A stretch of DNA of 64,000 nt from Bacteroidia bacterium. GTDB taxonomy: Bacteria > Bacteroidota > Bacteroidia > Flavobacteriales > Schleiferiaceae. Of the stretch, positions 39,855 to 44,096 are shown in pieces. The notes beneath the pieces are model-generated. The model was given only the letters and a program-made list of their open reading frames with translations. It was not told where the DNA came from and ran no database searches. Both the position numbers and the translations under genes were made by a program. Location of the stretch: NCBI GenBank assembly GCA_030424545.1, contig JAUHWL010000003.1, positions 124,001 through 188,000 of the forward strand, written 5' to 3'. Each line of letters starts with the position of its first letter. Positions within the stretch are counted from its first letter, which is position 1.

Positions 39855-42800
39855 ATGCCTGCTGCAAAACCTAAAGTTAGAAACACCTTTTTAATCGGTA
39901 CAATTTTAATTGTAGTTGCTTTTTTCAGCTATTACTTTCTCGGTCATATTCCCCAAAAAGAAAAAAATATGCGCGAATTAGGCATTCGTGTTATGAATAG
40001 AATGGTGAAGAACATTGCGGCCAAAGAAGTTCATTACAATAACTCCATTAAAAATTTTGAATGTCTGTATAATCTAGATGCATTGCTTGCAACAAAAGAT
40101 ACGGGCAACATTGCATACAACTTAAGCTATTCAGAATGCTTTTTAAGTCTTAATTCTATTCAAGAAAAAAGAGATCAATTTGAAGAGAAAGTAGATAGCG
40201 TTGATACGTATTATTTTGATTTATTGAAAGCAGAAAAAACAAAATACAATCAAACTAGAATTTCTGAGGGCGAATATTACGATGCGTTAGACGGTATATA
40301 TATGAGCTGGGATGACGCTTTGGTGACAGTGTTTAAAAGAATGAGATTTTTTGAATTGCTAAAAATAGAATTAAGCAAATTAGATAAGAAAGTAAAATAC
40401 GCCAATGGTAATGATACTTTAAAAGGAAATTTAGTTTACTGGAAACTTCTATCAAGAGGGAAGCGAGAATTGAATGTAGCTAGCAATGATTTTGAAGACA
40501 CCACATCGGTACAAGTATTAGCCATTAATGCAGATGATTTTTTAAATGACATAAAGAAATTTCAATATTTCGATGACATTATTCTTGTTGTACCTACTTC
40601 TGGTAAGGTGATGGATAAGAGCAAGAAAAACATAGATTTTTTTGATTTTAATACGCTATCAGAAGTGCAGATTGAAGGCGAAGAAATTCAAGAAGACAAA
40701 TCAAACACTGAGTTTTCGGGGGTAAAAATTTGGGAAAAGAAAATCTCTAACGTTCCGTATTTCGCGTACAGCCAATTGGTAAAACTTAATAACAAAGAGT
40801 ATTTGCTTACAGGATTAATAGAGCAAGATAAATTTAGGGCTAAGGTTAGAGAAGTGTCGGTTTGGGTCATCATGATTTCCATAATTGTGTTGGTATTTCT
40901 CATTCAAATTTTACCTGTTGTAAAACCATTTTTATTAGGTAAAAAAGAAAGGTTGCAAGGCGGTGATATGATTTGGTCTGGTATTTCCATCATTTTTGGT
41001 ATGGCAGCGCTTGCATTATTGGCCTTGGCTGTTGATACGTTTTCTCTAGAAGAAATAGATTTAGTAGATGAAAAATTGGAAAAGTATGCGCAAAAAATTG
41101 AGCAAAACTTTGCTGAAGAAACAAACTTAGCCCTACTAACTTTAGAGGATTATGAAAATGGAAAGTATGATGGGGATACCCTTTGGGATAATGAAAATCG
41201 ACTGAATAAAATATTCAACAACCAAAGAAACTATGTATCATTTTTAGGCATAGACCCCAAGGGAATTGGAAGTGAGTATTTTAGTTATTATAACAAAAAA
41301 GGCACTGACCCTACTATCTATAAAAAGTTTAATGAAGCAAATAACATCAATGTTTCTCATAGAAATTATTACAGAAAACATTTTACAGAAGATTCTACTA
41401 TTGTTTGGAAAATAAAATCGCCCAACCATAAAAATATATATAGACCGTATTTTATTGAGTCGGTTTTCAGCATGTCTATAGGTGAGTATGAAACAGTAAT
41501 ATCAATAAAAGATACCCTTAAAAATAGAGCTCTTGCTTATGTATATCCGTTTAAATCATTAAACAAAGTTTATTTAGAGCCCAATTTTACCTTTACCATT
41601 ATTGATAATAAAGGCGATATTCAATACCACTCTGACCAAAATAAAATTGGCAACGAAAATTTAATAGAAGAGAGTAATGAAAATGAAAACCTAATTGCTT
41701 TTATCAATAATGGCACAACAGATCAATTTAATATTGATTTAGCATTAACAGATTATAGAGCACATATTACTCCGCTAAAAAACACCAATTGGCACCTTGT
41801 AACATTTTATAAAATAGAAAATAGCCGTTTGTCTATAACCAGCACAATTACTATTGTTTTTCAATTTATTCTGGCCATACTCCTTTATTTAAGCTTACTC
41901 CATTTTGTATTAAAACTTCAAAAGGGAAGCAGAAAATCTACCATAAAAAAACCGTTTACATATTGGTTTATAAATCCGCTTGTTACACAACCCATACATT
42001 ATAAAAATTTAACAATTGTAAATGCGGGAGTTTTACTGTTTCTCATTTTAATATACAAAAGCAACGAGCTAAACCTGTATTTTAATATAGTGCTGTACTT
42101 CGCCATGATTACGGCCACAATACTGTATAATTATATTATTTTAAATGAGCAACGTGTAGATGAAATTGGCGTATTTGAAAAGAGAAAAGTAAAATATACG
42201 CTGTTTGAATTTATCTCGCTTGTGCTTTGCACAATCTGGATTATTCTATTCTTTCTGGTTTCTTCAGAAATAAATTTTTCCTGGATCTACCTCATTCCAG
42301 TTTTTACTATGGTTGGGTTGGTTGTGTGGGAAAAACATTTTCCGAGGGGAGTAAAGTTGGCCAACATAAAAGATATAGGCAAATACTTTTACGTTCCTTT
42401 TTATATACATTCCGTTTCGTGGGTGTTAATTTTAGGTATCGTACCTGCATTGCTGTTTTTTAAGCCCGTTTATAATCAACAACAAATAAAGCGGGTAAGT
42501 AAAAATTTAAACTCAGAATTAAATTTTAGAATTAATAATCAAGATTGGAACTCAAACAAAGTAGAATTGTTTGCGCCAGACGATAATGGTTTTGAACCTG
42601 TTAAAAACAGTTCTGTTTCTAGCCAATTGGTAGAATTGGTAAGTGTTTATTTTAAAAATGAAGGACAATATTTAAGGGGGCAAGAAAAGAGCGAAAAAAC
42701 CACCACAGAGTTAAAAATGGCCAGAGATCGCAATGGTAGTTTTTATAAATACTTTCAAATTAATTTTAATAATAACACTCCTTTCTACAACACCAAAAAG

Positions 42801-44096
42801 CTAGAGGCAAACCAAATAGTAGCCTTTTCTTTACCCAGAGTTTGGAAATCTAATTCAAGAAAATGGGCTGTAATTTTCTGGATTGTCATCGTTGCATTTC
42901 TTGTGCTGTTGTACATTCTCATTAAAAAAATTAGCGAAAAGTTCTTTTATCTAAAATTAACCAGAACACTTCATACAGCAACACCAGAGTATTTTACAGA
43001 CGATGTTTCATTAAGAAAAAAGCACAAAATAGATGAATCCAATATTTTACTTGTGGGCATCCCAAATTCCGGAAGAAACACGTATGCTTTTAGCTGTGTC
43101 TCAGATCCTAAAAAAGTGTTATTTATCGATTTTTTAAACGAGCTAACAGATATTAACAGTGAGTTGACTGATCTAAATTATGAACAGTCTATAATCATTA
43201 ATAATTTTGATTATCGCGTTTATGATTTTGAACAGAGCAAGTTAAAATTGGCTTTTCTAGAAAAAATATTAAGTGCTAGAAATAAGATTTTGTCAACCCA
43301 AAAAAACGTTGTTCTGGGCAAGTTAATCTTGGTTTCTAGTTTTGATATTTATCAGTTTATAGATGTTTATAAAGTAAAAATTAAACAACTAGCTGCCGAT
43401 AAAAACGCGAATAATTCAGATGAAATTGATAGACTTAAAAATGTGCTAGATCGATGGGAGTCGGCCTTGTTTAGTTTTACAAAGCATGTTGTTCCATTGG
43501 TGCATTCGCCTGCAAAAAACTATATAGACAGAGAATTAAATTTTGGTAAAGCGTTAGAAAAACTAAAACCAAGAATTTTAGCCTATAAGCAAGAACTAGA
43601 ACATTCTGATTTACACCTAAAAGAATCTGAAATTAGAGATAAAGTATTTGAGTCTATAGAAGATATGGCCGAGAACTATTATTTTTCTATTTGGAACTCT
43701 TGTGCATTAGAAGAAAAGTTTTTGTTGTATGATTTGGCCGAAGATGGCATGTTAAATTCTGCAAACAGCAAAGCTTTATACAGTTTGGTTAGAAAGGGAA
43801 TATTAATCTTTAGGCCTCATCTTTCTATTTTTAATGAGTCATTTAAAATCTTCATTTTAGAGTCAATAAGCGATGAAGAAAGTAAACAATTAGAAAAAGA
43901 AGCGAAAAAACAAGGCAATTGGAAAACATATCAATACTTGGTAGTATTCTTAGTGGTTGTTATTTTAATCTTCTTATCGTTAGCCGAAGATCACGCCATT
44001 GCAAAAATTACCAGCTTTGTTTCTTTATCCGCCATACTTTTCCCAAAAATTATTCAGGTAGCTTCCACCATTTCTAATAAAGGAAAAGCATATTAA
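39855..44096 (+). CDS. Large multi-pass membrane protein: extracytoplasmic sensor-like regions with cytosolic degenerate P-loop and winged-helix module
   Basis: 1413 residues; I do not recognise a named family. By eye: TM1 12-31; extracytoplasmic 32-335; TM2-3 (335-358, 373-394); a second extracytoplasmic domain 395-655 with dCache-like features ('RNYYRKHF', 'FTFTIIDNKGDIQYHS'); TM4-9 between 660 and 869; a third outside region 870-1002; TM10 1003-1024; a cytosolic region 1025-1355; and two final helices (1357-1376, 1383-1400). The cytosolic part has a P-loop-like GIPNSGRNT (1068-1076, Lys replaced by Arg, displaced Thr), a Walker B-like 'VLFID' (1088-1092), 'LILVSSFD' (1157-1164) and a winged-helix-like end (1275-1335). 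The helix count places all soluble parts consistently. It looks like a transmembrane receptor with a STAND/AAA-like output, but that is inference. Convergent, overlapping by four bases, with the HsdR-N-like gene. Confidence 0.7.
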   Translation: MPAAKPKVRNTFLIGTILIVVAFFSYYFLGHIPQKEKNMRELGIRVMNRMVKNIAAKEVHYNNSIKNFECLYNLDALLATKDTGNIAYNLSYSECFLSLNSIQEKRDQFEEKVDSVDTYYFDLLKAEKTKYNQTRISEGEYYDALDGIYMSWDDALVTVFKRMRFFELLKIELSKLDKKVKYANGNDTLKGNLVYWKLLSRGKRELNVASNDFEDTTSVQVLAINADDFLNDIKKFQYFDDIILVVPTSGKVMDKSKKNIDFFDFNTLSEVQIEGEEIQEDKSNTEFSGVKIWEKKISNVPYFAYSQLVKLNNKEYLLTGLIEQDKFRAKVREVSVWVIMISIIVLVFLIQILPVVKPFLLGKKERLQGGDMIWSGISIIFGMAALALLALAVDTFSLEEIDLVDEKLEKYAQKIEQNFAEETNLALLTLEDYENGKYDGDTLWDNENRLNKIFNNQRNYVSFLGIDPKGIGSEYFSYYNKKGTDPTIYKKFNEANNINVSHRNYYRKHFTEDSTIVWKIKSPNHKNIYRPYFIESVFSMSIGEYETVISIKDTLKNRALAYVYPFKSLNKVYLEPNFTFTIIDNKGDIQYHSDQNKIGNENLIEESNENENLIAFINNGTTDQFNIDLALTDYRAHITPLKNTNWHLVTFYKIENSRLSITSTITIVFQFILAILLYLSLLHFVLKLQKGSRKSTIKKPFTYWFINPLVTQPIHYKNLTIVNAGVLLFLILIYKSNELNLYFNIVLYFAMITATILYNYIILNEQRVDEIGVFEKRKVKYTLFEFISLVLCTIWIILFFLVSSEINFSWIYLIPVFTMVGLVVWEKHFPRGVKLANIKDIGKYFYVPFYIHSVSWVLILGIVPALLFFKPVYNQQQIKRVSKNLNSELNFRINNQDWNSNKVELFAPDDNGFEPVKNSSVSSQLVELVSVYFKNEGQYLRGQEKSEKTTTELKMARDRNGSFYKYFQINFNNNTPFYNTKKLEANQIVAFSLPRVWKSNSRKWAVIFWIVIVAFLVLLYILIKKISEKFFYLKLTRTLHTATPEYFTDDVSLRKKHKIDESNILLVGIPNSGRNTYAFSCVSDPKKVLFIDFLNELTDINSELTDLNYEQSIIINNFDYRVYDFEQSKLKLAFLEKILSARNKILSTQKNVVLGKLILVSSFDIYQFIDVYKVKIKQLAADKNANNSDEIDRLKNVLDRWESALFSFTKHVVPLVHSPAKNYIDRELNFGKALEKLKPRILAYKQELEHSDLHLKESEIRDKVFESIEDMAENYYFSIWNSCALEEKFLLYDLAEDGMLNSANSKALYSLVRKGILIFRPHLSIFNESFKIFILESISDEESKQLEKEAKKQGNWKTYQYLVVFLVVVILIFLSLAEDHAIAKITSFVSLSAILFPKIIQVASTISNKGKAY

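What the first reader, a model, noticed from the sequence alone, without database searches (positions are those of the whole stretch)
39855..44096. Unrecognised 1413-residue receptor-like membrane protein with degenerate P-loop and winged helix
Seen: about twelve helices, three large extracytoplasmic regions (32-335, 395-655, 870-1002), one ~330-residue cytosolic region with a P-loop-like GIPNSGRNT (Lys lost), Walker B-like VLFID and a winged-helix-like end, then two more helices. The even topology places all soluble parts consistently. Known: STAND/AAA signalling ATPases often pair a P-loop with a winged helix. Inference: a sensor protein that couples outside ligand binding to a nucleotide-binding or pseudo-NTPase switch. 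I know of no named family with this layout.
Basis: partly seen in the sequence, partly recalled or inferred. Interest (0 to 1): 0.75.

Follow-up and report, generated by a model that had tools for sequence, protein, structure and literature searches.

The report
Cache receptor with degenerate AAA+ output
This gene encodes a large membrane protein that pairs a common bacterial ligand-sensing domain on the outside with a worn-down ATPase-like module on the inside, a pairing without a named family that recurs in scattered Bacteroidota and may be a previously unrecognised kind of bacterial receptor.

Summary
The 1413-codon ORF (39855-44096, +) is real and intact. No Pfam, NCBIfam or PADLOC model matches it. 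Profile searches found about 30 homologues of 1100-1640 residues with the same layout, in roughly 2-4% of sampled Bacteroidota genomes (Zobellia, Arenibacter, Pricia, Pseudozobellia among the named ones).

Residues 398-662 fold as a double Cache (Foldseek E 1.8e-8; Z up to 15.7). Residues 1056-1240 fold as a five-stranded AAA+-type P-loop core (Z about 11 to DnaA/Hda), followed by a winged helix and a C-terminal helical hairpin. 'VLFID' is strand 2; Walker B is IIINNFDY.

Walker A is canonical in two relatives, half-intact in twelve, and lost in the rest, the query (GIPNSGRNT) included. The winged helix is the best-conserved part. Best reading: a ligand receptor whose output is a membrane-tethered, mostly pseudo-ATPase scaffold acting through protein contacts.

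Ligand and partner are unknown. In several other lineages the gene lies among peptidase/phospholipase genes (6/23 loci versus 1/38 controls, post hoc), but not in this window. All functional steps are inference.

The parts
39855..44096 (+). whole gene, 1413 aa, 12 predicted membrane helices
39951..40859 (+). outside region 1 (res 33-335); helix then beta sheet at 291-323; most of 82-220 unresolved
   Evidence: model; low confidence for most of 82-220
41046..41840 (+). outside region 2, double Cache sensor domain (res 398-662)
41361..41369 (+). R503-x-Y505, best-conserved site of the Cache domain: Arg in all 34 rows, Tyr in all but one
41841..42467 (+). six-helix membrane block (TM4-TM9, res 663-871)
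42468..42866 (+). outside region 3 (res 872-1004), fastest evolving, fold unresolved
43020..43574 (+). cytosolic AAA+-type P-loop core (res 1056-1240)
43056..43082 (+). degenerate Walker A GIPNSGRNT (res 1068-1076), Lys to Arg
43188..43214 (+). Walker B strand SIIINNFDY (res 1112-1120); first acidic position is Asn, D1119 kept
43668..43889 (+). winged helix (res 1272-1345), best-conserved region
43923..44069 (+). C-terminal membrane hairpin (res 1357-1405)
39624..39711 (-). tRNA-Ser(GGA) directly upstream; not a general neighbour of the family

Best explanation
It is a transmembrane receptor. The double Cache domain outside the inner membrane (and probably the other two outside regions) detects a small molecule or envelope state. 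The change passes through the membrane helices to a cytosolic AAA+/STAND-like P-loop domain joined to a winged helix and held at the membrane on both sides. In this protein the P-loop domain most likely does not hydrolyse ATP; it serves as a conformational scaffold whose winged-helix surface recruits or releases a partner protein. Shown by computation: domain folds, topology, conserved pairing, loss of Walker A. Inferred: ligand binding, signal transfer, partner recruitment.
For: dCache fold: Foldseek E 1.8e-8 to histidine-kinase sensor domains, Z 15.7 over 220 residues; Pfam dCache_1 in L088 (46.2 bits, cut-off 45) and L087 (43.0 bits, just under) over the same region. P-loop core with pLDDT mostly 85-94 and Z 11.4/11.1 to DnaA and Hda, plus weak AAA/NB-ARC/nSTAND1 profile hits in relatives. 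The layout is kept in all full-length homologues, and the core profile found no other architecture in 257 genomes. Walker A is canonical only in L087 and L090; 12 rows keep GK without the next Ser/Thr (or nearly so); the rest are eroded or deleted. Rough dN/dS among Zobellia-clade pairs: winged helix 0.006-0.029, P-loop domain 0.035-0.061, Cache 0.06-0.09, outside region 3 0.17-0.23. Winged helix 32% mean identity between lineages versus 13-21% elsewhere.
Against: No ligand, partner or output is known. Foldseek on the cytosolic part gave only E 0.018 at best; the fold call rests on VIA-align Z scores and the strand order. The gene is rare and fast evolving. dS is saturated in several pairs, so dN/dS is only rough.
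Confidence: 0.7

Rival explanations
1. Sensor of a hydrolase effector cluster: the receptor controls co-encoded peptidases and phospholipases, as the switch of a cell-death or conflict system. In this genome it would have lost, or act far from, those genes.
For: L090 lies in a same-strand run with two M19 peptidases, amidohydrolase, papain and caspase genes; patatin overlaps L036; trypsin next to L094; papain, subtilase and alpha/beta hydrolase at L096; M19, trypsin-subtilase and subtilase around the Zobellia clade; Tle1-like lipase 54 bp from L039. A membrane protein family without Pfam match recurs at L036, L090 and L094. 6/23 member loci versus 1/38 controls share such neighbours with another lineage, Fisher p 0.009.
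Against: The panel was chosen after the fact from these loci. Most lineages, the query included, lack these neighbours; the recurrent membrane protein is absent from the query genome, and its one caspase gene lies on another contig.
Confidence: 0.25
2. Membrane-tethered transcription regulator: the winged helix binds DNA, in the manner of CadC/ToxR.
For: A winged helix is present and its presumed recognition helix has a median net charge of +3 across the family.
Against: In the query the winged helix is acidic (pI 4.7, net -5; family median net 0); it sits between a P-loop core and a membrane hairpin. A winged helix behind the lid is normal in AAA+/STAND proteins without DNA binding (general knowledge).
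Confidence: 0.1
3. Transporter or channel gated by the Cache and P-loop domains.
For: A six-helix block (663-871) and twelve helices in all.
Against: No transporter family matches; that block is among the less conserved parts (16% between lineages).
Confidence: 0.06
4. Decaying remnant of an active STAND/AAA+ receptor, no longer functional in this genome.
For: Walker A and the first Walker B acid are both changed in the query; the ORF has the lowest GC (31.4%) of the long ORFs in the window.
Against: 1413 codons without a stop; relatives with imperfect Walker A show strong purifying selection on that very domain; the conserved Arg and winged-helix motifs are kept in the query.
Confidence: 0.07

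Closest known systems
dCache_1 receptors (chemoreceptors such as PctA/Tlp1, histidine kinases such as DctB, diguanylate cyclases)
   Same: Double Cache fold between two membrane helices, with a conserved R-x-[YF] inside the Cache domain
   Different: The output here is a P-loop plus winged-helix module, not MCP, kinase or cyclase; extra outside regions and twelve helices
AAA+ ATPases with a winged helix (RuvB, Orc/Cdc6; DnaA/Hda for the core)
   Same: Five-stranded P-loop core; C-terminal winged helix
   Different: Membrane-bound on both sides; Walker A lost in the query and most relatives
STAND NTPases, including the inactive iSTAND components of Kaur et al. 2020 (PMC7159879)
   Same: P-loop plus winged helix, often degenerate; some relatives lie among peptidase genes
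   Different: Outside Cache sensor, no vWA/MoxR partners among the neighbours identified, weak profile hits only

Membership tests
dCache_1 | Profile match above curated cut-off | tested here: inconclusive
   Query no match; relative L088 46.2 bits versus 45, L087 43.0; 4 of 24 members match at E<0.05
dCache_1 | Two Cache modules on one long stalk helix between two membrane helices | tested here: met
   Model; Z 15.7, rmsd 3.8 over 220 residues
AAA+/ASCE P-loop NTPase | Five-stranded core with P-loop helix after strand 1 | tested here: met
   Strand order; Z 11.1, rmsd 2.4 over 122 residues to Hda
AAA+/ASCE P-loop NTPase | Walker A GxxxxGK[ST] and Walker B acid (active ATPase) | tested here: not met
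   Query GIPNSGRNT and IIINN; canonical Walker A only in L087 and L090
STAND NTPase | STAND-specific motifs and profile match | tested here: inconclusive
   Only sub-threshold NB-ARC/nSTAND1 hits in relatives; fold lists do not separate STAND from AAA+
Sensor histidine kinase or chemoreceptor | Kinase or MCP output domain in the same protein | tested here: not met
   No such Pfam or NCBIfam match in the query
NucA-peptidase conflict system (System 3, PMC7159879) | NucA endonuclease plus trypsin-like peptidase in one operon | tested here: inconclusive
   Trypsin-like peptidases near L094 and the Zobellia clade; no NucA among the neighbours scanned, but not all neighbours were scanned

The most novel reading that the evidence does not exclude
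A new class of bacterial receptor in which an extracellular Cache sensor controls a membrane-bound pseudo-AAA+/STAND hub that in some lineages governs sets of peptidases and phospholipases: an outside-facing counterpart of the intracellular STAND switches.
Probability: 0.25. Interest if true: 0.85.

Novelty: new variant of a known kind. Interest (0 to 1): 0.6.

Why it matters
Cache domains are the largest group of extracellular sensors in prokaryotes (PMC4822843), and their well-known outputs are kinases, chemoreceptors and second-messenger enzymes. STAND and AAA+ switches are thought of as intracellular. A protein family that joins the two would add an output type to bacterial signalling and give a natural series, from intact to lost P-loop, for asking when a switch needs ATP.

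Tried and rejected
Direct database identity: no Pfam, NCBIfam, PADLOC or convincing PDB sequence match for the query. Phage or plasmid origin: no match to the query in the phage, plasmid or viral collections; one Persicobacter megaplasmid carries a family member. Conserved partner gene across the whole family: none. tRNA hot-spot: the tRNA-Ser next to the gene is not general. Bacteroidota promoter consensus: no more matches in the window than chance. Hymenobacter neighbour (1203 aa as annotated) of the recurrent membrane protein as a family member: rejected. Literature search for Cache joined to STAND/AAA+: nothing in the held library, which lacks most subscription journals. Weak partial hits in G114, G774, G788, G950, G1024 and several phylum genomes cover only a small part of the profile and were not counted as members.

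Full report
What is there. The ORF at 39855-44096 (+) encodes 1413 residues without interruption. The order contains a 300-kb genome and the named relatives are Flavobacteriaceae, so the window is most likely from a Flavobacteriales species (inference). The gene is single-copy and stands alone: a sodium symporter gene ends 323 bases upstream, a tRNA-Ser lies between, and the next gene is on the other strand. Its GC content, 31.4%, is the lowest of the long ORFs in the window, which would fit acquisition by transfer but does not show it.

Family. The query alone finds only four relatives in its family. A profile finds members of 1100-1640 residues in 9 of 396 genomes of the order, 18 of 395 of the class and 14 of 395 of the phylum; some of the weakest hits are only partial, so the true share is about 2-4%. 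Named carriers are Zobellia, Arenibacter, Pricia and Pseudozobellia. Identity to the query is about 15-41%. A tree of 30 members does not place the query firmly.

Topology and outside domains. Hydropathy, loop charges and the models agree on twelve helices with an even number of crossings. Region 398-662 is a double Cache domain: 127 PDB chains at E up to 0.001, best 1.8e-8, and Z up to 15.7. Relatives L088 and L087 match Pfam dCache_1 over the same stretch, L088 just above and L087 just below the cut-off. Within it, R503 is present in all 34 aligned rows and position 505 is Tyr in all but one. From general knowledge of dCache domains such an R-x-[YF] lies in the ligand pocket; this was not tested here. 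Region 1 shows a helix and a beta sheet but its middle is unresolved; region 3 is unresolved and evolves fastest.

Inside module. Residues 1056-1240 form strands at 1063-1068, 1088-1092, 1112-1116, 1157-1161 and 1209-1213 with the usual helices, mostly at pLDDT 85-94. VIA-align gives Z 11.4 to DnaA and 11.1 to Hda (rmsd 2.4 over 122), then RuvB, RFC and others near 9.5-10; Foldseek alone is weak (0.018). A winged helix and a membrane hairpin follow. Walker A is canonical in L090 (GPPGSGKT) and L087 (GLPGSGKS), keeps GK but not the Ser/Thr directly after it in twelve rows, and is eroded or absent elsewhere; the query reads GIPNSGRNT. At the Walker B position the query has Asn where L087 has Asp; the acid three residues on is kept (D1119). 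ATP hydrolysis by the query is therefore unlikely, while nucleotide binding cannot be excluded.

What is under constraint. In five Zobellia-clade pairs dN/dS is lowest in the winged helix, then (in nearly all comparisons) the P-loop domain, although their Walker A is imperfect (dS is saturated in several, values are rough). Between lineages the winged helix is about one and a half times to twice as conserved as any other part. The simplest inference is that the winged helix carries the contact surface of the output.

Neighbours. No gene accompanies the whole family. In several lineages, however, the gene sits among hydrolase genes: two M19 peptidases, amidohydrolase, papain and caspase around L090; an overlapping patatin at L036; a trypsin at L094; papain, subtilase and alpha/beta hydrolase at L096; M19, trypsin-subtilase and subtilase around the Zobellia clade; a Tle1-like lipase at L039. 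A membrane protein without Pfam match recurs at L036, L090 and L094 and also lies near patatin, S8 peptidase and amidase genes on Rhizobium, Hymenobacter and Caballeronia plasmids, in stretches without the receptor. Using a panel drawn from these loci and not counting self-hits, 6 of 23 member loci and 1 of 38 control stretches matched (Fisher p 0.009); the panel is post hoc. The query genome lacks the recurrent membrane protein. This link is a lead, not a result for the query. Kaur et al. 2020 (PMC7159879) describe peptidase-rich conflict systems, some with STAND NTPases; in the passages read none has an outside Cache sensor, and the word Cache does not occur in that paper.

Verdict. The parts are known, the combination has no named family in the libraries and papers searched, and the function stays inferred.

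Noticed in passing
L090:3691-17841: Same-strand run of amidohydrolase, two M19 peptidases, papain and a caspase (weak NCBIfam match to EACC1-associated caspase) around a family member with canonical Walker A.
   Followed up: partly
L036:4328-5572, L094:14578-15753, L090:3691-4707: Membrane protein family without Pfam match (ends in a GAPFWFDLLNKL-like motif) that recurs near hydrolase genes, also on Rhizobium, Hymenobacter and Caballeronia plasmids.
   Followed up: partly
L094:10776-13475, L096:11909-13951: Related proteins of 899 and 680 residues with signal-peptide-like starts and no Pfam (the first) or NCBIfam (both) match, next to family members.
   Followed up: no
G000:C24:94498-95286 (L129): The window's genome has one caspase-domain gene (670 aa), followed by a gene whose start looks like a CHASE2 protein (by eye).
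   Followed up: no
L092:7425-11762: The family member in G792 is split into two ORFs (729 and 714 aa) by one in-frame stop.
   Followed up: no
window 44093-44548 (-): Stand-alone HSDR_N_2 domain protein directly downstream of the gene.
   Followed up: no
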